Notes: generated from the sequence alone by a model not told the origin. A stretch of DNA of 35,523 nucleotides from Candidatus Peribacteria bacterium RIFCSPLOWO2_12_FULL_55_15 (GCA_001789045.1 MFYG01000012.1:1-35523); one strand, 5' to 3'. Shown: positions 4,143 to 30,983, counted from the first letter of the stretch. Numbers and translations are program-made.

Positions 4143-4217
4143 TGGGGAGTAGCCAAGTGGTAAGGCAACGGGCTCTGGACCCGTCATGCGGGGGTTCGAA
4201 TCCCTCCTCCCCAGCCA
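4143..4217 (+). tRNA. tRNA-Gln (anticodon CTG), CCA encoded
   Basis: The acceptor arms TGGGGAG (4143-4149) and CTCCCCA (4207-4213) pair fully, followed by G and an encoded CCA (4215-4217). The D arm contains AGCCAAGTGGTAAGGC. The anticodon arm ACGGG/CCCGT encloses the loop CTCTGGA, giving anticodon CTG for the Gln codon CAG. The T loop is TTCGAAT with a mostly G-C stem. A weak promoter (CTGACA at 4106-4111, TATGGT at 4127-4132, 15-base spacing) is possible. It marks the left edge of the AT-richer restriction-modification island, a common integration position. Confidence 0.95.
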
Positions 4218-4298: not shown

Positions 4299-7250
4299 TC
4301 ATTCCTCTTCCATCAACTTCTTGTAGATGAAGTCGAATATGCGAGTTTTGACGTAGTCATCCACTTCCTTGTTTCGGTCGAGCTTTGAATAGAGGTTGTA
4401 ATGGCTATTAAGCATGCCGATTTTCTCATCCTGATACATCTTTTCATAGCGGATCATGGCTGCGTCTTTTGGGTTATTGGTCATGGTTCCCTGCAATTTC
4501 TTATTCTGAAGGAGACGATTGCTCAAAGAATTAAGAATGAGACGGTCGTCTTCGGTAAACTCAGTTCCAAATCGCTCATTTACTTCTTTCAGGATTTTGG
4601 AAAGGAAATCCCGGTCTACATTGCCCCTGCCACGCTTGCTGCCTTCCATTGGTTCCAAGCCTTCGCCATCGATTCCCAATTGAATGGAACCCATCGAAAT
4701 TTTAGGGATTTTGATCGACTCCAGATCAATTTGCTCGAGAACTTCCAATGGTAATTCGGTTGGAATAATCGGCAGTTTCAGCCTGAGGAGACGGAGGAAT
4801 ATATAGAGCTTTTCCAAGCCCGTATCTGTGAACGTAAGAATCTGTGCTAAAAATGCGTACTTCCGGACGTAATCAAGAATCTTTCCACGCAGATTTTCCT
4901 GCCTCTCAGGATCAAGAGCCTTGAAACGTTCGACTATCTGGTCGAGGAAACTGTTGATCGTTCCAGGTGAAGCATCCCGAAGATACATCTTCGCAAGCTC
5001 AGCGACCTCTTGCTCCGTAAAGAGATGTAATTGCAGAATATCGTGCTGAAGATTGTGGAGAAGATTGGCGTCCGTTCCTTCGGAAAGAACAGTGGTTTGG
5101 TAATACGGTTCGAAAGATTTCTTGATGTCATCCGTCTCGTTCACAAAATCCAGTACGAATGCCTCCTCTTTGTCCGGGTGCGTGCGATTCAGACGGCTCA
5201 ACGTCTGCACTGCATTTACCCCGGAGAGCTTCTTATCGACATACATGGCTGTAAGGAGGGGCTGGTCGAAGCCTGTCTGGAATTTCTCCGCAACAATAAG
5301 AAACTTCGATTCCTCCTTCGCAAATTCATGCCCGGTATTCGCCTCTGGAATACCGTTATTCATCCCACTCTCCGTGTAATCCAGTCCGCCGTCGCGCACC
5401 GTGCCCGAGAAGGCCACCAGCGCCTTGATTGGCAAATTACTTTCACGCAGCCAGCTATCCATTGCGATCTTGTAGCGCACGGCATGCAGGCGGGATTTGG
5501 TGACGATCATCGCCTTTGCTTTCCCACCCGTCAGTTTCACGATCTGCGAAAGGAAGTGTTCGCCGATGATTCGCACTTTCATGCCGACCGTATGTTCGTG
5601 CAAATCAACATAATTCACCATAAGCCTCTGGGCTTGGGATTTTTGATATTCCGGGTCATCTTGAGCCTTTTTCAAAAGATTGAAGTACGTCTTGTAGGTC
5701 GTGTAATTCTTGAGGATATCAAGAATGAATCCTTCCTCAATGGCTTGTCGCATGGAGTACACACTGAACGGCACAAAGCTTCCGTCAGCCTGCTTTTCTC
5801 CGAAAAGCTCCATCGTCTTCTGCTTTGGTGTCGCTGTGAAAGCGAAGAAGCTGACATTCGACAGGCTCCCGCGACTCTGCATCTCTTTGAGGATCTGATC
5901 CTCAAAATCCGCCTCGTGCATGGCCTCGTCCTCTTTTTCTGCCTTCTCCAAGGTCGTTGAGAGCACTTGCTTGAGGCTTTTGGTACTTTCACCCGATTGC
6001 GACGAATGCGCCTCGTCAACGATCACTGCAAAGCGTTTGCCGGGTAGCTGGCCGATATCCGCGACGATCACTGGGAATTTCTGCAACGTCGTGATGATGA
6101 TTTTCTCTCCGGCTTCCAATGCGCTCTTGAGTTCCTTCGATCCCTCCGTGATCGGCTTTACTACTCCAAGCACCTGCTCGAATTGTTGTACTGTCTCGCG
6201 CAATTGACGGTCGAGGATCCGCCTATCCGTAATGACGATGATCGAATCGAAGATTTTCTGATTCTGTGCATCATGAAGCTCTGCCAAATGGTGCGATGTC
6301 CATGCAATGGTATTGCTCTTGCCGCTTCCCGCACTGTGCTCGATCAAGTACTTCTGCCCCGCACCCTTGCTTCGTGCATCGGCAATGAGCGACCGTACGG
6401 TTTGTAACTGGTGGTAGCGAGGGAAAATCAGCTTCTCTTTGCGGGTGGTTTTTCCCTTTGCATCCGTCTCATCAATTTTCTGCAAATGCATGAATCGCCC
6501 GATGATTTCGAGAATCGTTTCCCTGCTCCAGATGTCCTCCCACATGTAGGCTGTCTTGTATTCCCCCTCGCGAACAGTGTTACCTGCACCTCCATTATTG
6601 CCCTTGTTGAAGGGGAGAAAATACGTGCGTAGTCCCTCCAGCTTCGTCGTCATACGTACTTCCTCAGTATCCACGGCCATGTGTACCAAGCAGCGGCCGA
6701 AAGACAGGAGCTTCTCCTTGGGATCGCGGTCAGTTTTGTACTGCTTCATGCCTTGCAGAATCGACTGCCCGGTGAGCTGATTTTTGAGTTCCACGCTGCA
6801 GAATGGCAGTCCATTGAGAAACAACACCATGTCGACGCAATTTTCGTTCACCACCGAATACTTGAGCTGGCGCATGACGCTCAGAATGTTTGCCTCAAAA
6901 AGCTGCTCAATCTCTTCGTTCCGTGAGGATGTGGGCTGGAAGTAGGCAAGTCGGAAAAAGCAGCCGTTGTCCTTGATACCATTACGTAGGACTTCGAGTA
7001 GTCCCCGTGCGGTAATTTCCTCATCCAGACGCTTGAAGAATTTTTCTTCCAGCAGATCGCCATGATGCTCCACGAGCTTCGCCCATTCGTCCGGCTGTGT
7101 CGCTGCGATGAACTGCTTCAGAAGGTCACGATCCACGCACAGCGCTTTATCGTAGTACTCGTGTGCGGAGCGTTTGAGGAAGCCCCTTTCTTTGATCAGG
7201 AATTTCTCGATGTGTGCTTCGAAGCCGGATTCGCGAAGGTTAGTAGCCAT
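4299..7250 (-). CDS. hsdR: Type I restriction enzyme, R (HsdR) subunit
   Basis: This 983-residue protein is the DNA translocase and nuclease of a type I restriction-modification complex. The PD-(D/E)xK nuclease is visible as D140 with E154-L-K156 (VELK). The SF2 motor carries Walker A (SAGSGKS, 306-312), the DEAH box (412-415), motif III TATP (472-475) and a motif VI-like QTLSRLNR further on. The length is normal for the family and nothing is missing. I start at ATG 7248-7250, because the family begins about there; the longer open frame to 7322 overlaps the preceding membrane gene. It is the last gene of the hsd operon, only 2 bases after the membrane protein's stop, with no Shine-Dalgarno, so translation probably depends on coupling. 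It converges on the tRNA gene; the 81 bases between hold no clear terminator. Confidence 0.96.
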   Translation of the reverse strand: MATNLRESGFEAHIEKFLIKERGFLKRSAHEYYDKALCVDRDLLKQFIAATQPDEWAKLVEHHGDLLEEKFFKRLDEEITARGLLEVLRNGIKDNGCFFRLAYFQPTSSRNEEIEQLFEANILSVMRQLKYSVVNENCVDMVLFLNGLPFCSVELKNQLTGQSILQGMKQYKTDRDPKEKLLSFGRCLVHMAVDTEEVRMTTKLEGLRTYFLPFNKGNNGGAGNTVREGEYKTAYMWEDIWSRETILEIIGRFMHLQKIDETDAKGKTTRKEKLIFPRYHQLQTVRSLIADARSKGAGQKYLIEHSAGSGKSNTIAWTSHHLAELHDAQNQKIFDSIIVITDRRILDRQLRETVQQFEQVLGVVKPITEGSKELKSALEAGEKIIITTLQKFPVIVADIGQLPGKRFAVIVDEAHSSQSGESTKSLKQVLSTTLEKAEKEDEAMHEADFEDQILKEMQSRGSLSNVSFFAFTATPKQKTMELFGEKQADGSFVPFSVYSMRQAIEEGFILDILKNYTTYKTYFNLLKKAQDDPEYQKSQAQRLMVNYVDLHEHTVGMKVRIIGEHFLSQIVKLTGGKAKAMIVTKSRLHAVRYKIAMDSWLRESNLPIKALVAFSGTVRDGGLDYTESGMNNGIPEANTGHEFAKEESKFLIVAEKFQTGFDQPLLTAMYVDKKLSGVNAVQTLSRLNRTHPDKEEAFVLDFVNETDDIKKSFEPYYQTTVLSEGTDANLLHNLQHDILQLHLFTEQEVAELAKMYLRDASPGTINSFLDQIVERFKALDPERQENLRGKILDYVRKYAFLAQILTFTDTGLEKLYIFLRLLRLKLPIIPTELPLEVLEQIDLESIKIPKISMGSIQLGIDGEGLEPMEGSKRGRGNVDRDFLSKILKEVNERFGTEFTEDDRLILNSLSNRLLQNKKLQGTMTNNPKDAAMIRYEKMYQDEKIGMLNSHYNLYSKLDRNKEVDDYVKTRIFDFIYKKLMEEE

Positions 7251-7252
7251 AG

Positions 7253-7837
7253 TTAAAATAGATGAGAGATCAAAAGAATCAATAAAAGAACAAATGTCGC
7301 TAAACCAATAACCGTGTACCAAAATAAGGCTTTAAGTTTTTTTGCATTGCAATGTTCGGGTATCTCAATATGAGAATACTGATCTCCAAAGATGGATACT
7401 CTCAGAACCAATAGTAGAAGAAAAACCGCAAAATTTCTGAGCCAGTATGCACCGCGTTTGGGCCTCACCATTGGCATATTGTTGTTATCTGCACGAATGT
7501 AAGTCTCTAATAGCTTCAATTTGACGAGCTCTTGATCAATAGCAGAAGTTTTTCCCGCTCTGGAGTCCCAGTTGTTCTTTGTGAGCACATTTTGACATTG
7601 TACATCTGGAGAACTCCATCCTCCCAGCATCCATACATCCATGAACCGATCCGCCTGTGCAATTTCACAATAAATATTTCTCCCTAATGGACGATTACGG
7701 CGAATCAGACGTACAGCGAGGAAAGGGGCCTTGAAAGAAAAAGTGAGCGCAATAATCGCAGGAAGAATCACCAGCGATCCGATCACCAGCCAAAACAGGT
7801 TGATGCCGATGGATGAGAGTGTAAAAGCTTCAGACAT
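7253..7837 (-). CDS. Three-helix membrane protein inside the hsd operon
   Basis: This 194-residue protein is not recognised as a known family. It has one N-terminal membrane helix (about 10-33, from NLFWLVIGSLVILPAIIAL) and two C-terminal ones (about 133-150 and 170-192). A polar region of about 100 residues lies between, with RLIRRNRPLG next to the first helix and a hydrophilic, probably cytoplasmic middle containing one Cys. The ATG at 7835-7837 overlaps the last codons of hsdS by 8 bases, and its stop is 2 bases from the hsdR start. It is therefore an integral part of the operon and is presumably co-expressed with the restriction enzyme. A role in anchoring the complex at the membrane or in abortive infection is speculation. 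Confidence 0.82.
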   Translation of the reverse strand: MSEAFTLSSIGINLFWLVIGSLVILPAIIALTFSFKAPFLAVRLIRRNRPLGRNIYCEIAQADRFMDVWMLGGWSSPDVQCQNVLTKNNWDSRAGKTSAIDQELVKLKLLETYIRADNNNMPMVRPKRGAYWLRNFAVFLLLLVLRVSIFGDQYSHIEIPEHCNAKKLKALFWYTVIGLATFVLLLILLISHLF

Positions 7838-9125
7838 GATCGTGGGTGGGAGCTTTTATCTTTCCCGTCACCATGTGGGAGATAAGAGAGTTTTTGTATT
7901 CGTTGAGAAGAGAGATTGAACGCTCAATCTCTTTTGAAAATTCATCTATAAATTTTGTTTTTTCCTCAATGTAATTCGCAATTTTTACTTGTTCTTCGTA
8001 AGCTGGAAAAGCAATAGAATACTTATTGAGATCGGAAACTCTCAGGGATGGCTGCATATGTGATGGGATGCTGTCTTTCTCCCATTTGAACATTGGAAAT
8101 AGCTGGTAATAAAAATATCGAACGTCGATCTTCTTATCTTGTTTGATAAACAGAACGCAGTTTTGCGAGAGACTGAACTTTCCGCCGATAATCATTGGCG
8201 TCATTACTTTGGCGCCTACCGTCGTAGTAAAAATCGTGTCATCAAGGTCATAAATATATGAATTGATCCTACCCATCACTCCTTCATCTTCTGTTTGGCC
8301 GCTGTAAACCGGATATTCACCAATATTTTTTTGGTCACTCACATACTCCTTTGTAAATAGCCCTGCCCTTTTGCCTTTTTCGAATCGAAATACCGTTTTG
8401 AGTTTCTTGATGTCCCAAGGCTTTGGCATTTGTCCAATCCATTCCACCCCACTCTCCTTCATCTCCACCTTCTCACCTAACCCCTTTGTGACCGCTTGAT
8501 TGATAATTGCCGCACGTTGCTCCTGAAGAATCTCAATCTGCTTCTTTTTATCTTCGATAATACGATCGATGAGAGCACATTTTTCGTCGAGGTAGGATGC
8601 AATAAGAGATTGTTCATGCCTTGAAAAAATAGGCAAAAATAACTCTGCAAATTCTTTAAATCTAAAATCGGTCGACCTTTCTCTAATACCTTTAGCCAAG
8701 GAGAGCAAATAGTTGTTCTTGGCCAAATACCTGAGAAGATAGGAATAATAATTATTAGACACATCAAGAATGGCTGAACAGACTGAATAAACGGGGCTTG
8801 CCTTGCCATCCGAATCAGAAACACCAATCGCGCCTGCAAATCCGTCCATTCCATGAATAACTAAATCGCCGCTTCTGATGCCTTGATAGCCTATTTCTTG
8901 AATCGCATTTGTAAAACCTTCTTCTCGCCTGTTTTTTCTTGCTGTCACTACCCCATCCCTAAAGGCAGTTATGATTTCATCATTTTCATTTGCTTGCCTT
9001 CTCATTTGTCGAAAAATAAATTTTGCGCGACGGAATTCCCATGAATTTGGAATCTGTTCCAACCATTGGACTGAGGCGTTCTTATATTTCTCATATCCCT
9101 GATGCTGTTTCTTAAGAGTGATCAT
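7830..9125 (-). CDS. hsdS: Type I restriction-modification specificity subunit (HsdS)
   Basis: This 431-residue protein chooses the DNA target of the R-M complex. It has the classic two-part build: target recognition domain 1 (to about 190), a conserved coiled spacer (KKKQIEILQEQRAAIINQAV, about 194-213), target recognition domain 2 beginning ESGVEWIGQMPKPW, and a second conserved helix at the C-terminus (SISLLNEYKNSLISHMVTGK). Both halves open with a similar pattern (VQWLEQIPNSWE and VEWIGQMPKPWD). The length is normal and both domains look intact. The ATG at 9123-9125 overlaps the stop of the preceding gene as ATGA. The target sequence cannot be deduced by eye. Confidence 0.95.
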   Translation of the reverse strand: MITLKKQHQGYEKYKNASVQWLEQIPNSWEFRRAKFIFRQMRRQANENDEIITAFRDGVVTARKNRREEGFTNAIQEIGYQGIRSGDLVIHGMDGFAGAIGVSDSDGKASPVYSVCSAILDVSNNYYSYLLRYLAKNNYLLSLAKGIRERSTDFRFKEFAELFLPIFSRHEQSLIASYLDEKCALIDRIIEDKKKQIEILQEQRAAIINQAVTKGLGEKVEMKESGVEWIGQMPKPWDIKKLKTVFRFEKGKRAGLFTKEYVSDQKNIGEYPVYSGQTEDEGVMGRINSYIYDLDDTIFTTTVGAKVMTPMIIGGKFSLSQNCVLFIKQDKKIDVRYFYYQLFPMFKWEKDSIPSHMQPSLRVSDLNKYSIAFPAYEEQVKIANYIEEKTKFIDEFSKEIERSISLLNEYKNSLISHMVTGKIKAPTHDHV

Positions 9126-9586
9126 GGATGCTTAAAGAATTGGAGAACCGTGAAGATTGCAGAAATAAGAACGGCAATTTCAATAATGATGCCCCACCAT
9201 TTCTTGTACCACGGAGTTGGTTTGGGGATGTCATTGATCTTTCCTCCTTTTGCTTCAATGGTTGGTCTTCCATTCATCGATCCGGTATGGATTGCCACAT
9301 TGCCGCCTCTTCCCGGCTTACCACCGGGCCCCGCATCCCCACCGTTCGACAAAATTTTTCCTGTAAATCCGTCCATGTTTCCGGCAGCAATAAAAATATT
9401 GCCACCATCTCCACCGTCCGCTGGATTCCCTTTCTGATTCCCTTGATACATCTGCATAGCGGCCTCATGCACTTTTTCCTTCAACGTAAGCCTGCTGCCA
9501 AATTGCATGCCGTCAATGATCCTGATTTGCTCGGACGTCAGTTGCCCTCGCAATTCGGCCGACAGAAATTCTTCACTATTCTTCAT
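9122..9586 (-). CDS. Gly-rich (collagen-like or beta-helical) protein with C-terminal membrane anchor
   Basis: This 154-residue protein is not recognised. About residues 1-50 are helical and charged (LTSEQIRIIDGMQ). Residues 55-115 are strikingly rich in Gly, Asp and Asn with patterns such as GGDGGNIFIAAGNMDG, GGDAGPGGKPGRGGN and VAIHTGSMNGRP. Alternating Gly with aliphatic pairs suggests a beta-solenoid or polyglycine rather than strict Gly-X-Y collagen. The C-terminus has a Trp/Lys-flanked membrane helix (WWGIIIEIAVLISAIF) ending FFKHP. I start at ATG 9584-9586, which overlaps the stop of the 116-residue gene as ATGA. The longer open frame starts inside that gene. Its own stop overlaps the hsdS start. 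A tail-anchored accessory of the R-M operon is inferred. Confidence 0.75.
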   Translation of the reverse strand: MKNSEEFLSAELRGQLTSEQIRIIDGMQFGSRLTLKEKVHEAAMQMYQGNQKGNPADGGDGGNIFIAAGNMDGFTGKILSNGGDAGPGGKPGRGGNVAIHTGSMNGRPTIEAKGGKINDIPKPTPWYKKWWGIIIEIAVLISAIFTVLQFFKHP

Positions 9587-9933
9587 GAAGCTGGGTGGAA
9601 GTATTTCCAGTATTCGAGGCCAACGCTCAATGCTGCAATCAGCATTGATCCGAGCGCGATGATTGTGCCCCAAAGCGTGATGTTCTTAATGGCGCTAGTG
9701 AGCTTTCCCGATGATTCGTCCGCTTCCTTTATATTTTCGTTCAACTGAACGAGCTGTTCATTTAAAACAGGAAGTGACTCGCTCACTTTTTTTAGGTTCA
9801 TGCATATCCCTTCTGTAAAATGCAACAGGGTATTGTCCATCGTTCCTCCAGAGAAAAAGCCAGTGAGGGTCCTATAGAATGACTCCTGTAACACACGTAG
9901 TCTCTCCTGCGGATCATCGGGTAGCTTGTTCAT
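9583..9933 (-). CDS. Small coiled-coil membrane protein in the hsd operon
   Basis: This 116-residue protein has no recognised family. The first 40 residues are charged (LPDDPQERLRVLQESFYRTL). The middle has a heptad-like helix (LPVLNEQLVQLNENIKEADE) suggesting oligomerisation. A single membrane helix (LWGTIIALGSMLIAALSVGL) lies near the C-terminus, followed by EYWKYFHPAS. The start at 9931-9933 overlaps the fic stop as ATGA, and the stop overlaps the next gene's start in the same way. The topology of cytoplasmic coil plus C-terminal helix matches that of the next protein, so the two may interact. This is an inference from context. Confidence 0.75.
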   Translation of the reverse strand: MNKLPDDPQERLRVLQESFYRTLTGFFSGGTMDNTLLHFTEGICMNLKKVSESLPVLNEQLVQLNENIKEADESSGKLTSAIKNITLWGTIIALGSMLIAALSVGLEYWKYFHPAS

Positions 9934-11084
9934 TGGTTTGAGCGGGAATCAAACAGTGCGATATATTCTTGGAACGAGAAAATCCGATTTTTCTCCTTGC
10001 CCGTTGTCTCTTTCAGGATGCCCGCGCCCGCGAACTGATCGACGAGTGTGTGCGCAGTCGGCTTCGTCACGTTCATCGCGTCAATCACATCCTTCACCTG
10101 CAAAGTCGGATGCGAGAAGAGGTACGTCAGGAATTTGTGTGCAAGCGGGGTACGCTTACCAAACGACGAGGTGATTTGGTCGGCGTACTTCTTATGGAGC
10201 ACGGTGATTTTCTGCATCGTGTCCTTGGCGCTCTTGGCCGTCACAGCCACTCCGGCAAGGAAGAAGAGAAGCCACTGATCCATCTCGCCGTGCGTGCGCA
10301 CGCGCTCCAAGCAGTCGAAATATTCCTGCCGATGCTCCTCCAGATAGGCAGAAAGGTACAAGACGGGTTTGCCGAGCAGTTGCTCGTGCATCAGGTGCAG
10401 TGTGATCAGGAGACGCCCCGTGCGGCCGTTGCCGTCGAGGAACGGGTGAATCGTCTCGAATTGGTAGTGGCTCACGGCCGTGCGGATGAGAGCAGGCGTG
10501 ATAATTGCAGAGCTGTGCCAGTAGCGCTCGAGATCGGTAAGGAGGTCGGGGATTTCCGTAAACGGCGGCGGCACAAAACGCGCTGTGGCGGGCGCGGGTC
10601 CTCCAATCCAGTTCTGGCTGGTGCGTACTTCGCCGGGCAACTTTCCTTCTCCGCGTACGCCCTGCATGAGGACACGATGAGCGCCCTTGAGCACGCGCAT
10701 ACTAAGCGGGAGCCGCTTGAGTTCATCGATCGCCCATGTGAGGGCATCCATATAGTTTCGCACCTCCCGGTAGTCGTCACGTCGCTCTCCTGAGATTTCC
10801 TCGGGCGGCAAGAGAGCCTCCTCCACATTCGTCTTGGTGCCTTCGATGCGGCTACTCGTGACGGCTTCCTTGGCGATGTAGAGCTCGAGAAACGCGGAGC
10901 TATCGGGAACAAGCTGTGAATAGGCATTCAACTCACCAAGAGCATGCATAGCCTCAGCCAGTGCCGGAACGATTCGCTCATCCTGCCATACATAGTGGCT
11001 ATTGAGCAGATTCGATGGAATAAAGGCTTTAAAGCCCTTTTCCTGCCTGTATATTCCTGCTTGGTAGGCCATCTCGCTGAACAT
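9930..11084 (-). CDS. Fic-domain protein with autoinhibitory motif and C-terminal winged helix
   Basis: This 384-residue protein has a complete Fic active-site motif HPFLDGNGRTGR (about 213-224). Fic proteins transfer AMP or related groups to hydroxyl side chains of target proteins. The N-terminal SSRIEG (about 77-82) fits the inhibitory helix motif [S/T]xxxE[G/N], so activity is probably held in check. The C-terminal 100 or so residues look like a winged helix (VKDVIDAMNVTKPTAHTLV, then AGILKETTG), as in many Fic regulators that bind DNA. I start at ATG 11082-11084, which has AAAGG 6 bases upstream; a TTG at 11111 is possible. The gene lies between hsdM and two membrane genes. An inverted repeat just upstream may be its own operator. 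Confidence 0.92.
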   Translation of the reverse strand: MFSEMAYQAGIYRQEKGFKAFIPSNLLNSHYVWQDERIVPALAEAMHALGELNAYSQLVPDSSAFLELYIAKEAVTSSRIEGTKTNVEEALLPPEEISGERRDDYREVRNYMDALTWAIDELKRLPLSMRVLKGAHRVLMQGVRGEGKLPGEVRTSQNWIGGPAPATARFVPPPFTEIPDLLTDLERYWHSSAIITPALIRTAVSHYQFETIHPFLDGNGRTGRLLITLHLMHEQLLGKPVLYLSAYLEEHRQEYFDCLERVRTHGEMDQWLLFFLAGVAVTAKSAKDTMQKITVLHKKYADQITSSFGKRTPLAHKFLTYLFSHPTLQVKDVIDAMNVTKPTAHTLVDQFAGAGILKETTGKEKNRIFSFQEYIALFDSRSNQ

Positions 11085-11109
11085 AGTAGCCTTTACCCAA
11101 TACTCAGTC

Positions 11110-11139
11110 AAGTAATAGTTACTCTATTTTCTATTACTT
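11110..11139. promoter_or_regulatory. Inverted repeat upstream of fic, candidate operator
   Basis: AAGTAATAG (11110-11118) and its exact complement CTATTACTT (11131-11139) are separated by 12 bases in the short gap between hsdM and fic. It is AT-rich with no T tract, so it is more likely a protein-binding site than a terminator. The winged helix of the Fic protein is a candidate binder, by inference only. Confidence 0.5.
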
Positions 11140-11153
11140 GTGTATCCTCTTGG

Positions 11154-13157
11154 TTAGAGCTTTTTCAAGAGGCCTAAAAGTTCATTTTCCACCTTTTCCA
11201 GATCAGATTCGATCTCTTCCAGTGGACGCGGCGGGACGTACTTGTAGAAATAGCGGGTGAAAGGAATTTCATAGCCCACCTTTCCGACTTTGTTGTCCTT
11301 GTGATCGCGCACGCTCTCATTGATCCATGCGTCTGGAACGTACGGCAAAACTTCTTTTTTAAAGTAGTCTTCGATTTTTTGATCGTAGGGAACGTTCTCG
11401 GTGTCGCGGAACTCGCTGTCGGATTCGGGCCTCCCGTCTTCGTCTTTGCATATCTCAGCAGATTCGTCGCGCTCGGATAGGGATTCGATGATCGCTTTCT
11501 TAAGAGGGGCTTTGATTTTCAGATCTTCGGTCTTCAAAAGTTTTTCCAGCGCAGCGGTGAATGTCTCGCGATTGTTAAAACTCTTGGTTCCAAGCGACAA
11601 GAGAAGCGCAAGAATCTTCTTCTGAAGTGTCTCGTCGCCCTTCTTGCTTTCCGCGATGGCTGCAAAAGCCTTGTGTTCTTTCAGGCGGTCTATGCGCTCA
11701 GGAGATGCTTTAAAGTTCAGGCGTAACGGGCGTTCAACGGTGATCTGCCTGAAGGCAAAGTCTGTTGCCTTAAAGATCTTGCAGTGGTCACTCTCTTTGA
11801 ACGCGCTGAATTCCTGGAGTACACGGCTTCGATCTTCGTCCGTGATCTCATTGCGTTTATTACCGAGACTTTTTCGCATCTTATGAAAGAACGTCCGCGC
11901 ATCGATGAGCTGCACTTTCCCTTTGCGCTTCACGTCCTTCCTGTTGGTGAGGAACCACAGATACGTGGAAATACCCGTGTTGAAGAACATTTGATCGGGC
12001 AAGGCGACGATGGCTTCCAGCCAATCATTTTCCAGTATCCAGCGCCGGATTTCGCTTTCACCCGATCCCGCGTCTCCCGTGAACAAGGGCGATCCATTCA
12101 TGACAATAGCCATACGGCTGCCTCCATCAGACTCGTTCTGCATCTTGCTGACGAGGTGTTGGAGGAAGAGGAGCTGGCCGTCGGAGATACGTGGAAGTCC
12201 TGCGCCGAAGCGTCCGGCGAAGCCGCGCTCCGCCTCACGTTCCACGGAATCTTTGTCGCGCTTCCAGTCCACGCCGAAGGGGGGATTAGTGAGAAGATAG
12301 TCGAATTTTTTCTCATGGAATTGATCATTGCTGAGTGTCGATGCCTGAGCAGCGTCTTTTTCGCCTCCTTTGATATTGTCGACATCTTCGCCTTTGATCA
12401 GCATTTCCGATTTGCAGATTGCGTATGTGGCGGGGTTAATTTCCTGGCCGAAGAGATAGACGCCTATATCGGGATTGATGACGGAAACATGATCTTTGCC
12501 TACGGTAAGCATGCCTCCGGTGCCGCAGCAGGGGTCATAGATCGTTTTCACGAGATGCTCTTTTTTGAGGCGGTCCTTTTCCGGCGTGAAAAGAATTTCC
12601 ACCATCAATTTGATCACTTCACGCGGTGTGTAGTGTTCTCCGGCTGTGTCGTTGCTCTGTTCTGCAAAGCGACGGATGAGTTCTTCGAAAATAGATCCCA
12701 TTTCGTGGTTGTCTGTAGCTTCAATCGAAAGATCAACTTTGTTGAATTCCTGGATGATTTTGAACAGCAAATTGCCCCCCCAGAGCCGCGAGAGATGCTT
12801 TTCAAAATCAAACTTCTCCAAAATTTCCTGTATGGCGGGACTGAATCCATGGAGATACTTTTTGAAGTTCTTCTCGAGATGTGTCTGTTCATCCAGGAGA
12901 TTCTTAAAAGTGAATTGCGACGTGTTGTAGAAACCGACTTTCGTAATATTGCGAAGGATCGGATCTGGGTTCACTCCTCTCTCCTCAAGCAGATGACTTT
13001 CTCGGAGAACTTCTTGCTTCGTTTTTTCCAAGACCGAATCAAGGCGCTTCAGAACAGTAAAGGGCAAAATCACGTCCTGATATTCGTGCTGTTTCCAGCT
13101 TCCACGGAGAAGTTCCGCGATATTCCAAATCAGGTTGGCTTTTGGCGTGAAATTCAT
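11154..13157 (-). CDS. hsdM: Type I restriction-modification methyltransferase (HsdM)
   Basis: This 667-residue N6-adenine methyltransferase subunit has the HsdM N-terminal helical domain (about 1-150, NLIWNIAELLRGSWKQHEYQ) and the family signature GEHYTPREV (173-181). The SAM-binding motif I follows (DPCCGTGGM, 208-216), then catalytic motif IV NPPF (291-294). The C-terminal part is long and charged, and ends in helices (LEEIESDLEKVENELLGLLKK) that would contact HsdS. I chose ATG 13155-13157 because the family begins with this helical domain; the longer frame adds residues with no homology pattern. It is the first R-M gene, 64 bases downstream of the recombinase stop, with an inverted repeat in that gap. 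Nothing is missing. Confidence 0.96.
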   Translation of the reverse strand: MNFTPKANLIWNIAELLRGSWKQHEYQDVILPFTVLKRLDSVLEKTKQEVLRESHLLEERGVNPDPILRNITKVGFYNTSQFTFKNLLDEQTHLEKNFKKYLHGFSPAIQEILEKFDFEKHLSRLWGGNLLFKIIQEFNKVDLSIEATDNHEMGSIFEELIRRFAEQSNDTAGEHYTPREVIKLMVEILFTPEKDRLKKEHLVKTIYDPCCGTGGMLTVGKDHVSVINPDIGVYLFGQEINPATYAICKSEMLIKGEDVDNIKGGEKDAAQASTLSNDQFHEKKFDYLLTNPPFGVDWKRDKDSVEREAERGFAGRFGAGLPRISDGQLLFLQHLVSKMQNESDGGSRMAIVMNGSPLFTGDAGSGESEIRRWILENDWLEAIVALPDQMFFNTGISTYLWFLTNRKDVKRKGKVQLIDARTFFHKMRKSLGNKRNEITDEDRSRVLQEFSAFKESDHCKIFKATDFAFRQITVERPLRLNFKASPERIDRLKEHKAFAAIAESKKGDETLQKKILALLLSLGTKSFNNRETFTAALEKLLKTEDLKIKAPLKKAIIESLSERDESAEICKDEDGRPESDSEFRDTENVPYDQKIEDYFKKEVLPYVPDAWINESVRDHKDNKVGKVGYEIPFTRYFYKYVPPRPLEEIESDLEKVENELLGLLKKL

Positions 13158-13221: not shown

Positions 13222-14604
13222 CTACTCGATACAAAGTCTTCCATCCTGAAGTGTGATTTTGCTTTTAAGCGAACTGAGCATCAGACGTTTTTCTTCGATG
13301 GCTCCATTTTTCAGCACGTACTTTGCATAGCCCCGCACATCCATCTTCGGAATCTTGATCTCACTTTGCATTCCAAGAACGTCTGCGGTGAATTTGTTCA
13401 TCCGCCCCACTTCGGCTTCCAACTTTTTCCTCATGCCAGTCTTGTCGAGATCAATCTGATCAATGAGACCGAGGAGTTGGGCGAGCAGTTCATCCTCACG
13501 CACATACGGCTGCTTGCAGCTCTGATCGAACCGCGAGCAGTGATAGTAGACGTACTTTTTGATCGTTCCATCGCGGAGGGTCTTGAACTTCTCCTCGGCA
13601 GTGATGCCATTTCCGCAGTTGCCGCATTTGATCATTTTCGTAAATGCGAACTCTTTTGTCCCTGGTCTCATCTTTGGGGCAACAGCGAGGAGAGAACGCA
13701 CTTCGTCAAAAAGTTCTTTGGTGATGAGCGGCTCATGCGTTCCTTTGTACAGATTGCCGCTGCCTTTCGGATACTCGAAGTAGCCATAGTAGAAGGTACT
13801 ACTCAGAATTCTGTAGATGGCCGAGAGCGCTATCCGCTTGTTCCCTCTCGTCTTGAAATTCAGTTCGTCATTCAGCCATCCGAGAAGTGTCCTCCCGCTC
13901 GCTCCGCTCTCTGCAACGTAGTGGAACATTCGCTTAATGATTGGGGCACGGAGAGGATCGATGATGATTCTGCCCTTGTTTCGTTCCAAGCTTCTCTCGT
14001 TCAAATATCCAAGTGGTGCGACGCCCGGACGCACGCCCATCTCGCACTTGTTCTTGAGACCGCGTTTCACATTGATTCCTCGATTGTCATTTTCCAGCTT
14101 CGCCTGCGAGCAAAGGATCATGAGAAGAAATTTCTCATTTGGAGAATTTGTGAATTTCTGTCCGGTCGTTCGGATCTCTTTGAGGAACCCTTGATCCATC
14201 AAGTCCACAAGTGTTCCCAAATCTCCGGCATTCCTACTCAACCGATCCGGTGCCCACGTGACCACTCCGGTGAACACTCTGCTTCTGATATCTTTAAGGA
14301 GTTGATTGAAAACCGGACGCTGACCGGAGTCTTTTGCCGAGTGACTTTCGCGCCGAATTTCCGCGATGTCCAGACCGTCCCTTTTTGAGACTGTCTGCAT
14401 CTCCTTGATCTGGGAATCGATGCTGAGTGCCTGCCTTTCGTCATCCTCGGAGGACTTCCGGGCATAGAGGCAATAACGGATCGGTTCAGCTTCCTGTTTT
14501 TGTTCTCCATGCCACGAAGTTGATGGTCTATCAAGAATGGTCTGTGGTGACTGTTCTAGAAGTGTAGGAATGGGAGTCATATGGGACAGTGGGGTATGTC
14601 TCAT
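13222..14604 (-). CDS. Large serine recombinase (resolvase/integrase family)
   Basis: This protein of about 460 residues cuts and rejoins DNA through a serine. The resolvase domain opens YCLYARKSSEDDERQ, with the likely nucleophile Ser near 51, and carries APDRLSRN. It is followed by the recombinase domain (about 190-290, GVRPGVAPLGYLNERS) and a zinc ribbon (CGNCG, later HCSRFDQSC). A C-terminal coiled region ends the protein. All parts of a large serine integrase are present, so it may be active. The start is uncertain: ATG 14604 or ATG 14580 are both in frame and neither has a Shine-Dalgarno. It points the same way as hsdM, 64 bases downstream. A nested repeat array lies just upstream of its start. 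Confidence 0.92.
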   Translation of the reverse strand: MRHTPLSHMTPIPTLLEQSPQTILDRPSTSWHGEQKQEAEPIRYCLYARKSSEDDERQALSIDSQIKEMQTVSKRDGLDIAEIRRESHSAKDSGQRPVFNQLLKDIRSRVFTGVVTWAPDRLSRNAGDLGTLVDLMDQGFLKEIRTTGQKFTNSPNEKFLLMILCSQAKLENDNRGINVKRGLKNKCEMGVRPGVAPLGYLNERSLERNKGRIIIDPLRAPIIKRMFHYVAESGASGRTLLGWLNDELNFKTRGNKRIALSAIYRILSSTFYYGYFEYPKGSGNLYKGTHEPLITKELFDEVRSLLAVAPKMRPGTKEFAFTKMIKCGNCGNGITAEEKFKTLRDGTIKKYVYYHCSRFDQSCKQPYVREDELLAQLLGLIDQIDLDKTGMRKKLEAEVGRMNKFTADVLGMQSEIKIPKMDVRGYAKYVLKNGAIEEKRLMLSSLKSKITLQDGRLCIE

Positions 14605-14639
14605 CAATGCCGGAACGATTCGCAAAGGCTAGGCAAAAA

Positions 14640-14905
14640 GTCTCCGAATGGGACACAAAAAGACACCCCCTGTTGTACTGTCCCATTTGTCTCATTTGTC
14701 AGATGAAATTCCTATTGTCCAGTATGAGTCTGGAAGCCACCGAAGTACTGTAACATTTGTCACATCTATCCCCCCGCTACTACTGTTCGGATTGTTCGGT
14801 TTACCCCCTCAAAGTACTGTCCAATTCTGTCCAATTCACCCCCCCTGAAACCGCCCGAATTTGCCTCCGACCCGCCCTCCTGAGCCGACCCATTTCGACC
14901 CCCTG
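14640..14905. repeat. Nested repeat array, about 35-bp units each with two half-repeats
   Basis: Units begin at about 14675, 14711 (degenerate), 14745, 14780 and 14814. The clear ones read TACTGT-NNN-ATT-TGT-NNN-ATT and then a run of C. Within a unit the variable bases of the two halves agree: CCC/CTC, AAC/CAC, CGG/CGG and CCA/CCA. More decayed units seem to follow to about 14905 (GACCCATT then TCGACCCCC). AATGGGACA at 14647-14655 is the exact complement of TGTCCCATT at 14679-14687. The period is not a multiple of three, so it is not coding. It lies directly upstream of the recombinase gene. Confidence 0.75.
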
Positions 14906-27539: not shown

Positions 27540-28790
27540 TTACCAACTTCCGGGACCAAAACTCGGGCCCATATTTCCGCCACCACCACTGTCCCACTCT
27601 CCATTGCCAAAGCCACCGCCATCAAATTCTCCTCCACCGGAATCATCCTGATCCTCACACTCCGCAGCCTTGTCCTCGAATTTTGCGATCTCCTTCTCCA
27701 TCCGCGCTTTCATCTTCGTCATTTGCTTCTCCATCCGCGCTTTCATCTTCGCAATCTGCTTATCGATCTTTCCATTGATCTTTGTAATCTGCTTCTGATA
27801 CTTCGCGATTTTTTTCTCGTCGTCTGTATCGTCAATCTTGTCTTGCAGGCGCTCAATCTGGCCTGCGGCTTTCTCGCGCATATTCTCCTCCATATCACTC
27901 AAGCGATCCGTTTTCTCCTCGTCCATTTCCAGGAGACGGCTCTTCATCTCATCGATGATGTCATCGAACATGTCGCAACTCATCGGACCTCCGCGACCCG
28001 GGCCTCCAGGCCCCATCATTCCAGGCCCCATCATTCCAGGCCCCATCATTCCAGGCCCCATCATTCCAGGCCCCATCCCCTTTCCAAAGCCACCGGGCAT
28101 CATCTGACCACCCGGCATCATTTGCTGCATGGGCATCTGTTGTCCTTGCTGCATCCTACCCTGTCCCATCGGTTGGACACTCGGCTGCGTATACGACCCA
28201 TGCCATTGCCCTTCTTGCTGCGCACAATTATCCGGTGATCCCCCTCCTTCCCACCGACTCCCGAAGAAACACACTCCTCTACCGTTTTGGCGAAGAGCCT
28301 GACTGACTTGTTCCGGCGTGGGACCCTGCTGTTGCTGCCCCTGCCAATCCTGTTGGCCACCACCTTGGCCATCTTTTACGCGGTTCCAGGTTCCATTCTG
28401 GCACTCCCAATGATTCCCAAAGCCCGCCTTATCTTGCTGTGGATTCTCCCCACATTGCCCCCCTCCCTGCGACCACTCTCCCTGCTGTTGCTGTCCCTGC
28501 CACTGCTGCTCACCGGCACCATGTTGATTTGGATATTCACACCAAAACCCTCCATGCCCGTCATCTCTGGCAATGCCATCCGGACAACGACCGGTATCGC
28601 TCTGCTGCGGCGCCGGCTGATCTACCGTTATCGCCGGCTGCACATTTGTCGTCGTAGTCGGTACATCATTGGCGGCGTTCTCTTGCGCCAGCGTGAGCCC
28701 CGCAAGAGCCACGACACTCGAAGCGACGAGCGCGGCGACCCCGGCGACGAGGAGGTGATTGCCGCAACAACTTCCTGAACTTTTACTCAT
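27540..28790 (-). CDS. Secreted Gln/Gly/Met-rich protein with Cys/Trp modules and C-terminal coiled coil
   Basis: This 416-residue protein begins with a signal peptide (SCCGNHLLVAGVAALVASSV, ending ALAGLTLAQ) that resembles the proteins at 380-1429 and 29053-30918. The two Cys before the hydrophobic stretch are unusual. About 60-200 holds three loose modules of Cys, Gly and Trp (CPDGIARDDGHGGFWCEYP, CGENPQQ...HWECQNGTW, GVCFFGSRW...NCAQQEGQW) joined by Gln-rich linkers. Next comes a tandem GPGMM repeat (about 238-262). A long charged coiled coil follows (about 270-380, MKARMEKQMTKMKARMEKEI), then a Gly/Asp-rich end. Function is unknown; Met-rich runs can bind copper, but that is only a thought. 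It is last in a three-gene minus-strand operon, 33 bases after the small gene. Confidence 0.8.
   Translation of the reverse strand: MSKSSGSCCGNHLLVAGVAALVASSVVALAGLTLAQENAANDVPTTTTNVQPAITVDQPAPQQSDTGRCPDGIARDDGHGGFWCEYPNQHGAGEQQWQGQQQQGEWSQGGGQCGENPQQDKAGFGNHWECQNGTWNRVKDGQGGGQQDWQGQQQQGPTPEQVSQALRQNGRGVCFFGSRWEGGGSPDNCAQQEGQWHGSYTQPSVQPMGQGRMQQGQQMPMQQMMPGGQMMPGGFGKGMGPGMMGPGMMGPGMMGPGMMGPGGPGRGGPMSCDMFDDIIDEMKSRLLEMDEEKTDRLSDMEENMREKAAGQIERLQDKIDDTDDEKKIAKYQKQITKINGKIDKQIAKMKARMEKQMTKMKARMEKEIAKFEDKAAECEDQDDSGGGEFDGGGFGNGEWDSGGGGNMGPSFGPGSW
28006..28080 (-). repeat. 15-bp tandem repeat, five units (codes for GPGMM)
   Basis: On the plus strand, CCAGGCCCCATCATT is repeated at 28006, 28021, 28036 and 28051, with a changed fifth copy at 28066. 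The four copies are identical, which implies recent expansion. The 15-base unit keeps the frame. Confidence 0.93.
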
Positions 28791-28823
28791 ATATGTGTTG
28801 GTAAGAAAAAAATAAAGCCATCG

Positions 28824-29042
28824 TTAGAGCACACCCTCTCCCCGGTAAAACACTTGCTCCTCACTCACGTACTGCGGATTGTCCTCCTCTCCTCCATCGC
28901 AGCAGACGACTGGAACATGTTGCAGAGCCGCGACCGGCTCTGCGTTCACACGCGCCTGCACTGCGATGTACCCCACTCCCACACTCCCCGCCATAGCGAG
29001 GAATGCGAGGGGGAGCGTGAGTGGATGACGATGTCTATACAT
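28824..29042 (-). CDS. Small exported or membrane-anchored protein of the secreted-protein operon
   Basis: This 72-residue protein is not recognised. A basic start (MYRHRHP) and one hydrophobic helix (LTLPLAFLAMAGSVGVGYIA) act as signal or anchor. The exported part is short and acidic with two adjacent Cys (VVCCDGGEEDNPQYVSEEQV). The ATG at 29040-29042 follows the upstream gene by 10 bases, so the two are co-transcribed. The longer open frame reads back through the acidic C-terminal coding region of that gene and is rejected. Confidence 0.62.
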   Translation of the reverse strand: MYRHRHPLTLPLAFLAMAGSVGVGYIAVQARVNAEPVAALQHVPVVCCDGGEEDNPQYVSEEQVFYRGEGVL

Positions 29043-29052
29043 AGAGAGAAAA

Positions 29053-30918
29053 CTAGAAATCGAAGTCTTCGAAGTCTTCTTCTTCCTCATCGGTTCCGCC
29101 TTCCTCCACTTCCCATTCCCCCTTATCGACCTCACGGAAACCTTCCTCTTCATCGAATGATTCATCGAATTCCTCCTCAAACCCGAGCTCTTCCATGACC
29201 GCATTGAACCGATTCTCCACTTCGTCCCACTCCTCCTGCGGGATCGTTCCATCTTCTACGGCATTTTCCATCGGCTCACGCATCAGTTCCTCGAGCGCTC
29301 CCATCAGACCACTGCCAATTTCTTCTTCATCCTTCCCGGGACCGGCGCCAAGCGCCTCATCGAGAATACGCCCACATGCCTCAAATTCCTCCCGAATATC
29401 CTCTCCAAAGTCATCCTCGTTGTCGAAGCTCTCACCTTCGTCCTCGTCATCTTCGAATTCATCGTCGTTTTCCTCGTCATCGAAGAGTTGTGCGAGAAGA
29501 CCGCGGATGCCGAAGAAATCTCCTTCCTCTTCGAGATCAGGAAGATCGCTGCATGCCTCCTCCGCCTCCTTCGCCTTTTCCCCAATTTTTACAATGATTC
29601 CTTCGATTTCTTTCACCTCATCATTCGTGAATACATCGTGTTTCTTTGCAACATCGAGCGCAAAGTACACCGGACCCTCTGTGTCAGCGAAGATGTCGAG
29701 CATCTTCACGGCATTCTCCATCATCTCCGGATCCGGCGGCCCACCATCGCCACCCATTCCCGGCCCGCCGCCGCACTCCTCCTGCATCCGGAACCCGACC
29801 TCCTCGAGTTCCTCGAAATCTTCGACGTCGCCGATCTCTTCGACGAAATCCGGACACATTTCTTCCGCCATACCGCGCATCATGTCTTTCGTGCTCTCGA
29901 GTTCGTCCCCCATCCACTCCGGCATGCCATCACCAAAATCATCACCGCTACCGAAGTACTCATCAAACCCTTCCTGCATCATCTCTGGATCGAAATCCAT
30001 ATCGTAGAAGTTCCCAAGATTTCCAAAGTCCTCCATCTGGAATCCAAAGTCCTCCGGGCTATCGTGGAATCCATCGTCGGAGAAATCATCAAACCCGCCA
30101 AAATCTTCGGACCCTCCATCAAAATCACCTTCATCTCCCTCAAAACTCTCATCCTCAAAATTTCGGAAATCTCCCCGCCCCTCAATTGCGGGAGCAGACG
30201 CACGCTCCGTCGTCTCCTCCGCAGGAGCAGGAGTGACTGCAGCAGGTGCTAGTGCTGGCTCCGGTACTGCCGGTGCGGGTGGCGTAGCAGCCTTCAGTTC
30301 ATCGCAGTATTCCGTCCCCGTCTGCATGTTGACGGCCGCATTCTTCACACCACGGGCGGTCGCGGCAGATTTGATATCATCGCACATCTGTTTTTCGCCC
30401 GTCTTCGGGCTACTGCATGCTCCCAGTTCAATGAGACACCGCACGCGCTCCGCACAGTCTTCATTCGCATGTGCACAGCGATCGGTCACGGTCGTGGTCG
30501 TGGTCGTTGATGTCGTTGTGGACGTACTCGTCGGACATGCCTGCGAACACCAATTCATGCAGAACTGGCTCGTACATGTAGCCTGACAGGACTTCAGATC
30601 CGCAGTGGGACACGCAGGTGTTGTGGAGCTGGTCGTCGTTGTGCTCGTCGTTGTGCTCGCTCCAGTAGTACCACCAATAGGCGATCCTCCACTGGGGCTT
30701 CCACCGGAGTAATCGCCACACTGCCACGCATGCGTGGTAAAATCACACCAACAATTCCCTGAGGGAGGTGAGCCGCCACACATGTCTTGGGCGAGATACA
30801 CTGCCCCCCCTACGAGATCATTCTTGTACGTCGTGACACCTGCGATGGCAGCGACACTCGAGGCCACGAGCGCTGCAACGCTCAGGACAAGCAGATTTTT
30901 CTTCTGTATTTTCGACAT
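29053..30918 (-). CDS. Large secreted, highly acidic Cys- and Thr-rich protein
   Basis: This 621-residue protein starts with a leader (MSKIQKKNLLVLSVAALVAS then SVAAIAG) like its two relatives. After it come a Cys/Trp module (CGGSPPSGNCWCDFTTHAWQC), Thr/Ser linkers (STTTSTTTTSST), two more Cys-rich segments (SCQATCTSQFCMNWCSQAC and CAHANEDCAERVRC) and a Pro/Ala linker. From about 230 on it is extremely acidic, with Phe-Asp-Gly patterns (GDFDGGSEDFGGFDDFSDDG) and long Asp/Glu runs to the end (EEEEDFEDFDF). Acidic tracts with calcium- or other metal-binding capacity are plausible, but no known domain is seen. I start at ATG 30916-30918, behind a good promoter. It leads the minus-strand operon with the genes at 28824 and 27540. 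Confidence 0.82.
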   Translation of the reverse strand: MSKIQKKNLLVLSVAALVASSVAAIAGVTTYKNDLVGGAVYLAQDMCGGSPPSGNCWCDFTTHAWQCGDYSGGSPSGGSPIGGTTGASTTTSTTTTSSTTPACPTADLKSCQATCTSQFCMNWCSQACPTSTSTTTSTTTTTTVTDRCAHANEDCAERVRCLIELGACSSPKTGEKQMCDDIKSAATARGVKNAAVNMQTGTEYCDELKAATPPAPAVPEPALAPAAVTPAPAEETTERASAPAIEGRGDFRNFEDESFEGDEGDFDGGSEDFGGFDDFSDDGFHDSPEDFGFQMEDFGNLGNFYDMDFDPEMMQEGFDEYFGSGDDFGDGMPEWMGDELESTKDMMRGMAEEMCPDFVEEIGDVEDFEELEEVGFRMQEECGGGPGMGGDGGPPDPEMMENAVKMLDIFADTEGPVYFALDVAKKHDVFTNDEVKEIEGIIVKIGEKAKEAEEACSDLPDLEEEGDFFGIRGLLAQLFDDEENDDEFEDDEDEGESFDNEDDFGEDIREEFEACGRILDEALGAGPGKDEEEIGSGLMGALEELMREPMENAVEDGTIPQEEWDEVENRFNAVMEELGFEEEFDESFDEEEGFREVDKGEWEVEEGGTDEEEEDFEDFDF

Positions 30919-30954
30919 AGTCCGAAGGGGAAAATGAAATGTGTGTTCCTCTTC

Positions 30955-30983
30955 ACTATAGCACAAGATTCACTGTTCTTCAA
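30955..30983 (-). promoter_or_regulatory. Promoter of the acidic secreted-protein operon
   Basis: On the minus strand, TTGAAG (30983-30978) and TATAGT (30960-30955) are separated by 17 bases. Transcription would begin near 30948, giving a leader of about 30 bases that contains AACACACAT, as in the gene at 380. Confidence 0.65.

What the first reader, a model, noticed from the sequence alone, without database searches (positions are those of the whole stretch)
7253..13157. Type I R-M operon carrying a Fic protein and three membrane proteins
The order is hsdM, fic, coiled-coil membrane gene, Gly-rich tail-anchored gene, hsdS, three-helix membrane gene, hsdR. From fic to hsdR every junction overlaps by 4 or 8 bases or leaves a 2-base gap. 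Only hsdM and fic are spaced, with an inverted repeat in that gap. Fic genes near hsd loci are known to me, but I do not know this set of three membrane-anchored partners. A tempting reading is a two-layer defence: DNA restriction plus a membrane-located, Fic-controlled response if restriction fails.
Basis: partly seen in the sequence, partly recalled or inferred. Interest (0 to 1): 0.78.

Follow-up and report, generated by a model that had tools for sequence, protein, structure and literature searches.

The report
Restriction island with swappable membrane-protein cargo
In a small-genome bacterium, a complete DNA-cutting phage-defence operon carries four extra genes, a Fic toxin-type enzyme and three small membrane proteins; carrying such passengers is normal for these operons, but these three membrane proteins match no known family and only one of them was seen elsewhere, inside another such operon.

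Summary
The operon is real and tightly packed. A complete Type I R-M system (hsdM 13157-11154, hsdS 9125-7830, hsdR 7250-4299, all on the minus strand) contains a SoFic-type Fic enzyme, a 116-aa coiled-coil/TM protein, a 154-aa Gly-rich/TM protein and a 194-aa three-TM protein. From fic to hsdR the genes overlap by 4, 4, 4 and 8 nt or leave a 2-nt gap. Embedded cargo is the rule in this phylum: 27 of 29 complete hsd loci carried it, 9 of them with a membrane protein. Fic sits in or beside hsd in several others. The full set does not recur. The 116-aa protein has one clear relative in 380 genomes, also between hsdM and hsdS, but next to AbiTii and a GIY-YIG-like gene, not Fic. The 154- and 194-aa proteins are orphans. 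A serine recombinase upstream, a tRNA-Gln at the other edge and lower GC suggest an integrative island. Best reading: an R-M island with exchangeable back-up defence cargo, in which Fic is one layer and the small membrane proteins a separate, unproven one. 'Fic-controlled membrane response' has no support. This is a new variant of a known kind (C. jejuni mlo/rlo genes, PrrC).

The parts
13222..14625 (-). serine recombinase (large resolvase type), 64 nt upstream of hsdM; true start probably downstream of the TTG at 14625
   Evidence: Resolvase, Recombinase and Zn_ribbon_recom Pfam domains; relatives at 50-61% identity in other genomes of the phylum
11154..13157 (-). hsdM, 667 aa, N6-adenine methyltransferase with intact DPCCGTGG and NPPF motifs
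   Evidence: PDLC03029 2.4e-281
11109..11140 (.). perfect inverted repeat CAAGTAATAG-12 nt-CTATTACTTG in the hsdM-fic gap, operator-like; not a terminator and no supported promoter
9930..11111 (-). fic, SoFic-type AMPylase (393 aa from TTG at 11111; ATG at 11084 likelier), with HPFLDGNGRTGR active site, class II inhibitory motif SSRIEG and C-terminal wHTH-like end
   Evidence: (SoFic 8e-116)
9583..9933 (-). 116-aa protein: predicted cytosolic coiled coil plus one C-terminal TM helix
   Evidence: homolog in G076 inside an hsd locus
9122..9586 (-). 154-aa protein: helical N-terminus, Gly-rich segment with two GGN-(I/V)-x-I units, PWYKKWWG + TM anchor; orphan
7830..9125 (-). hsdS, 431 aa, specificity subunit
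7253..7837 (-). 194-aa protein with three predicted TM helices and a ~100-aa loop between TM1 and TM2; orphan
4299..7250 (-). hsdR, 983 aa, translocase/nuclease
4143..4217 (+). tRNA-Gln(CTG); its 3' end faces the end of hsdR, candidate island boundary

Best explanation
This is a horizontally acquired Type I restriction-modification island, with the recombinase on one side and a tRNA-Gln on the other, whose hsdM-hsdS and hsdS-hsdR gaps serve as slots for exchangeable defence cargo. HsdM2S methylates host DNA, and with HsdR it translocates and cuts unmethylated phage DNA (established for the family). The embedded SoFic-type AMPylase is made with the R-M enzyme and held in check by its own inhibitory helix. 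It is proposed to be released during infection, or when restriction is blocked, and then to modify a host target and stop growth (shown for other SoFic enzymes; inferred here). The 116-aa coiled-coil protein and the 154-aa Gly-rich protein are proposed to form a membrane-anchored pair whose soluble parts face the cytosol, and the 194-aa protein a further membrane effector; both would damage or signal at the membrane independently of Fic. Shown: gene order, coupling, enzyme motifs and recurrence of the cargo principle. Inferred: island mobility, defence role, triggers, pairing and topology.
For: Complete hsdRMS with intact motifs. SoFic match with HPFxDGNGR and (S/T)xxxE(G/N) motifs. Translational coupling across the whole cargo. 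27 of 29 complete hsd loci in the phylum carry embedded genes, 9 with TM proteins, and L046 carries three. Cargo elsewhere includes AbiTii, a KAP NTPase, CD-NTase + SLATT_4, 4-fold beta-flower + coiled-coil TM, AlbA, RhuM and DUF4062. Fic is embedded in or adjacent to hsd in L021, L028, L030 and L057, nearby in L033 and L037. The only clear 116-aa homolog is in the same hsdM-hsdS slot. GC is 0.41-0.51 over most of the island against 0.51-0.62 in flanking DNA, fic excepted at 0.58. A recombinase relative sits beside hsdM in L032.
Against: The full set recurs nowhere. The 154- and 194-aa proteins have no relatives in any search, so their function rests on position alone. TM proteins are not enriched inside hsd loci (11 of 68 embedded genes against 86 of 268 flanking ORFs). 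No att repeats or empty site were found. No expression or phage data exist.
Confidence: 0.5

Rival explanations
1. The small membrane proteins, especially the 116-aa one overlapping fic, are antitoxin-like partners that hold Fic at the membrane or inactive, rather than effectors.
For: In E. coli a 47-residue protein encoded downstream of Sofic (AS1) counteracts its toxicity (PMC12249575). The 116-aa gene is immediately downstream of fic with a 4-nt overlap. In L030 another small gene (87 aa) follows an embedded fic before hsdS.
Against: The 116-aa homolog in G076 has no Fic in its locus. The fic genes in L021 and L028 have no such downstream partner, hsdM following directly. The Fic protein carries its own class II inhibitory motif.
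Confidence: 0.2
2. Passenger or addiction cargo: the extra genes stabilise the mobile island or are recent insertions at a recombination hotspot, with no concerted defence role.
For: Cargo turns over completely between loci. Fic is a toxin-type enzyme. A serine recombinase is adjacent. Two of the genes are orphans.
Against: Tight overlaps keep the cargo co-translated with hsdS and hsdR. Where identifiable, cargo elsewhere is repeatedly of known defence families rather than random genes. The 116-aa family recurs in the same slot.
Confidence: 0.2
3. One reading: a single two-layer system in which Fic controls a membrane response carried out by the three membrane proteins.
For: All are in one coupled transcript with R-M. 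Two-layer designs exist for PrrC and Type I R-M.
Against: Fic and the 116-aa family occur without each other in other hsd loci. The membrane proteins do not recur as a set.
Confidence: 0.1

Closest known systems
Campylobacter jejuni hsd loci with mlo/rlo genes (Miller et al. 2005, as cited in PMC5183652)
   Same: extra ORFs between hsdM and hsdS and between hsdS and hsdR of a Type I R-M operon
   Different: cargo here is SoFic plus three membrane proteins of no known family; host is a small-genome, CPR-like bacterium
EcoprrI/PrrC and other R-M-embedded toxins (PMC3710099, PMC12707154)
   Same: toxin gene inside a Type I operon as a second line of defence; Fic/Doc-like and RhuM toxins are reported with PrrC/RloC in R-M operons
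   Different: no ABC-HEPN nuclease here; the toxin is an AMPylase and the trigger is unknown
SoFic / Sofic defence protein (PDLC03963; PMC12249575)
   Same: Fic fold, active-site motif, N-terminal inhibitory motif, C-terminal winged-helix-like part
   Different: embedded in an hsd operon; score is below NCBIfam's strict SoFic equivalog cut-off (178.6 vs 550)
4-fold beta-flower + coiled-coil TM pair in hsd loci (L025, L046)
   Same: small soluble or beta-type domain plus coiled-coil TM protein, adjacent genes inside an hsd operon
   Different: no sequence similarity detected to the 154/116-aa pair; the beta domain is a separate soluble protein there
CD-NTase + SLATT_4 nested between hsdS and hsdR (L039)
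   Same: membrane effector cargo in the same slot as the 194-aa gene
   Different: a recognised nucleotide-signalling pair; the 194-aa protein has no SLATT match

Membership tests
Type I restriction-modification system | hsdM, hsdS and hsdR with methyltransferase, specificity and SF2-motor/nuclease domains in one operon | tested here: met
Type I restriction-modification system | sequence-specific methylation and ATP-dependent cleavage | not testable with these tools
   needs methylome or biochemistry
SoFic-type Fic AMPylase | Fic_N + Fic domains and PADLOC SoFic profile over the whole protein | tested here: met
   (8.2e-116, residues 26-388)
SoFic-type Fic AMPylase | HPFx(D/E)GNGRxxR active site and (S/T)xxxE(G/N) inhibitory motif | tested here: met
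   HPFLDGNGRTGR and SSRIEG read in the translation
SoFic-type Fic AMPylase | NCBIfam equivalog cut-off for SoFic | tested here: not met
   178.6 bits against 550: same family, not an equivalog
hsd-embedded accessory (mlo/rlo-like) genes | genes inside the hsd operon, co-directional, in hsdM-hsdS or hsdS-hsdR gaps | tested here: met
   phylum survey
PrrC-like R-M guardian | ABC-ATPase/HEPN anticodon nuclease activated when R-M is inhibited | tested here: not met
   no such domains in any cargo gene; the functional analogy remains open
Serine-recombinase integrative island | recombinase gene plus att direct repeats or an empty site in relatives | tested here: inconclusive
   recombinase and flanking tRNA-Gln present; no att repeat or empty site found
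Conserved four-gene Fic/membrane module | the accessory genes recur together between hsdM and hsdR | tested here: not met

The most novel reading that the evidence does not exclude
The 116-aa coiled-coil TM protein and the 154-aa Gly-rich (possibly short beta-solenoid) TM protein form a new two-component membrane effector that plugs into Type I R-M operons and fires when restriction fails, one of several unrelated 'sensor + coiled-coil TM' pairs in these loci.
Probability: 0.2. Interest if true: 0.65.

Novelty: new variant of a known kind. Interest (0 to 1): 0.4.

Why it matters
It adds unannotated membrane proteins to the list of R-M-embedded cargo and shows, within one phylum, that Type I operons almost always carry extra, exchangeable genes, many recognisable as defence genes. 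That makes hsd gaps a practical place to look for new defence proteins that island-based searches miss, and makes 'does R-M failure trigger a membrane response?' directly testable.

Tried and rejected
Pfam, PADLOC, PHROGs, NCBIfam and PDB sequence searches of the three small proteins: nothing credible. Plasmid and phage tblastn: none. The seven genome-contig and one viral hit to the 154-aa protein (L008, L012-L018) match only the PWYKKWWG + TM anchor, which sits on unrelated proteins, and were rejected as relatives. Weak 116-aa profile hits (G226, G047 and others) are coiled-coil/TM noise or outside hsd loci. Single-sequence structure models are too weak to use: pLDDT 49 and 57.5, only the TM helix of the 154-aa protein confident; no fold search was run. 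Terminator or promoter role of the inverted repeat: fold z -1.3, no T-run, promoter-like hits below the shuffles. Att direct repeats between the tRNA side and the recombinase side: none convincing. Empty-site search in the family: flanking genes not conserved together.

Full report
What is there. The window is one contig of a 0.896-Mb, 24-contig genome. Genome sizes of its relatives (0.5-2 Mb) and the titles of some contigs hit by chance suggest a candidate-phyla-radiation lineage, but its name was not established. On the minus strand lie a serine recombinase (14625-13222), hsdM (13157-11154), fic (11111 or 11084-9930), a 116-aa gene (9933-9583), a 154-aa gene (9586-9122), hsdS (9125-7830), a 194-aa gene (7837-7253) and hsdR (7250-4299). 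Pfam and PADLOC confirm the R-M subunits and the Fic protein. The three small proteins match nothing credible in Pfam, PADLOC, PHROGs, NCBIfam or the PDB.

Junctions. The hsdM-fic gap holds a perfect inverted repeat, 10-bp arms 12 nt apart. As RNA it folds no better than shuffles (z -1.3), it has no T-run and no supported promoter, so an operator is the likeliest use (inference). By a rough estimate of mine such a repeat is expected in under 1% of gaps of this size. Codon scores favour the named frame of the 154-aa gene and weakly that of the 116-aa gene. They do not help for the 194-aa gene, which rests on being the only stop-free frame there and on its tight junctions with hsdS and hsdR.

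Fic. The protein matches the SoFic profile over its length (8e-116), aligns with solved SoFic structures, and has the active-site motif HPFLDGNGRTGR and the class II inhibitory motif SSRIEG. It is below NCBIfam's equivalog cut-off. Sofic provides anti-phage protection by abortive infection and is toxic, with a 47-aa downstream antitoxin in one E. coli strain (PMC12249575). SoFIC is among the commonest defence families in groundwater genomes (PMC12259885).

The 116-aa protein. One clear relative was found in 240 and again in 380 genomes of the phylum: 97 aa in G076, 50% identical over 56 residues, in a locus ordered hsdM, GIY-YIG-like (by eye; no Pfam hit), coiled-coil TM, AbiTii (PF18864, 4.5e-36), hsdS, KAP NTPase, hsdR. 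It overlaps its neighbours in the same way and sits in the same hsdM-hsdS slot, although the two HsdM proteins are only 29% identical. So the family recurs in hsd loci but without Fic.

The 154- and 194-aa proteins. No relative was found in 240 genomes of the phylum, in 192 and 145 genomes of the class respectively, or in plasmids; the 154-aa protein was also absent from phages. Genome-contig and viral hits to the 154-aa protein match only its PWYKKWWG + TM anchor, which appears on unrelated proteins. Its Gly-rich part has two similar units, GDGGNIFIAAGNMDG and GRGGNVAIHTGSMNG (3 of 2000 shuffles score as well), as a short beta-solenoid would. A single-sequence model places a strand in each unit, but at low confidence. 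Basic residues before the TM helix suggest the Gly-rich part is cytosolic (positive-inside rule, inference).

How usual is embedded cargo? HsdM was searched in 380 genomes of the phylum and 40 hsd regions were fetched. Of 29 with hsdM and hsdR on one strand, 27 carry at least one extra gene and 9 at least one membrane protein; L046 carries three. Membrane proteins are not enriched there (11 of 68, against 86 of 268 flanking ORFs), so three among four cargo genes is uncommon. Cargo includes CD-NTase + SLATT_4 (L039), 4-fold beta-flower + coiled-coil TM pairs (L025, L046; the TM partners are related, E 9e-9), AlbA, RhuM and DUF4062. Fic is inside or directly beside hsd in L021, L028, L030 and L057, nearby in L033 and L037. 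The closest HsdM relatives (65-69% identity) have fic overlapping hsdM from the upstream side and none of the membrane genes in the stretch held. The tiling of ORFs and a hydropathy threshold set these counts, so they are approximate.

Island character. GC falls to 0.41-0.51 across most of the operon against 0.51-0.62 in flanking DNA, while fic is at 0.58, which suggests a mosaic. A tRNA-Gln ends 82 nt from hsdR. Relatives of the recombinase at 50-61% identity occur in several genomes, two of them (L092, L096) also near a tRNA-Gln whose 3' end faces the recombinase, others next to Type III-like or other methyltransferase genes. No att repeat or empty site was found, so mobility is likely but unproven.

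Mechanism. Established for the families: HsdM2S methylates, HsdR2M2S cuts, SoFic AMPylates and is autoinhibited. Inferred: Fic is released on infection or R-M inhibition; the membrane proteins form an independent layer. Published work already proposes multilevel defence from R-M with embedded toxins, including PrrC and Fic/Doc- or RhuM-type genes, and extra ORFs in hsd gaps are a named feature of C. jejuni. The finding is therefore a new variant of a known kind: familiar architecture, unfamiliar cargo.

Verdict. Observation confirmed; interpretation partly supported.

Noticed in passing
L039:3724-5583 (+): A CD-NTase (SMODS + AGS_C) and a SLATT_4 membrane effector lie between hsdS and hsdR: a nucleotide-signalling defence pair nested in a Type I R-M operon.
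   Followed up: partly
L025:4300-5017; L046:11554-12299: 4-fold beta-flower protein followed by a coiled-coil TM protein recurs as a pair in two hsd loci, once in each gap; the TM partners are related to each other.
   Followed up: partly
L087, L088, L091, L094, L097 and others: Relatives of the window's recombinase often sit by a trio: ParB-N/DNA methylase, small HTH protein and terminase-like ATPase (domains checked in L094). This may be a recurring mobile element of the phylum.
   Followed up: partly
window 14675-14839: Three diverged ~26-nt repeats at 69-70-nt spacing (GTACTGTCCCATTTGTC...) upstream of the recombinase, with inverted copies of TGTCCCAT near its start; possible recombinase sites.
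   Followed up: no
window 4143-4217; L092:12082-12155; L096:6183-6256: tRNA-Gln near the recombinase-bearing element in three genomes, 3' end facing it; no att repeat found.
   Followed up: partly
L012-L018: The anchor motif PWYKKWWG before a TM helix is shared by unrelated membrane proteins of many small-genome bacteria.
   Followed up: no
window 27540-30966 and 299-1429: Long secreted proteins with similar N-terminal signal/TM stretches (VVAGVVAFLTSGVITLAGL, LVAGVAALVASSVVALAGL, LSVAALVASSVAAIAG) followed by Gly/Gln- or Thr-rich low-complexity sequence.
   Followed up: no
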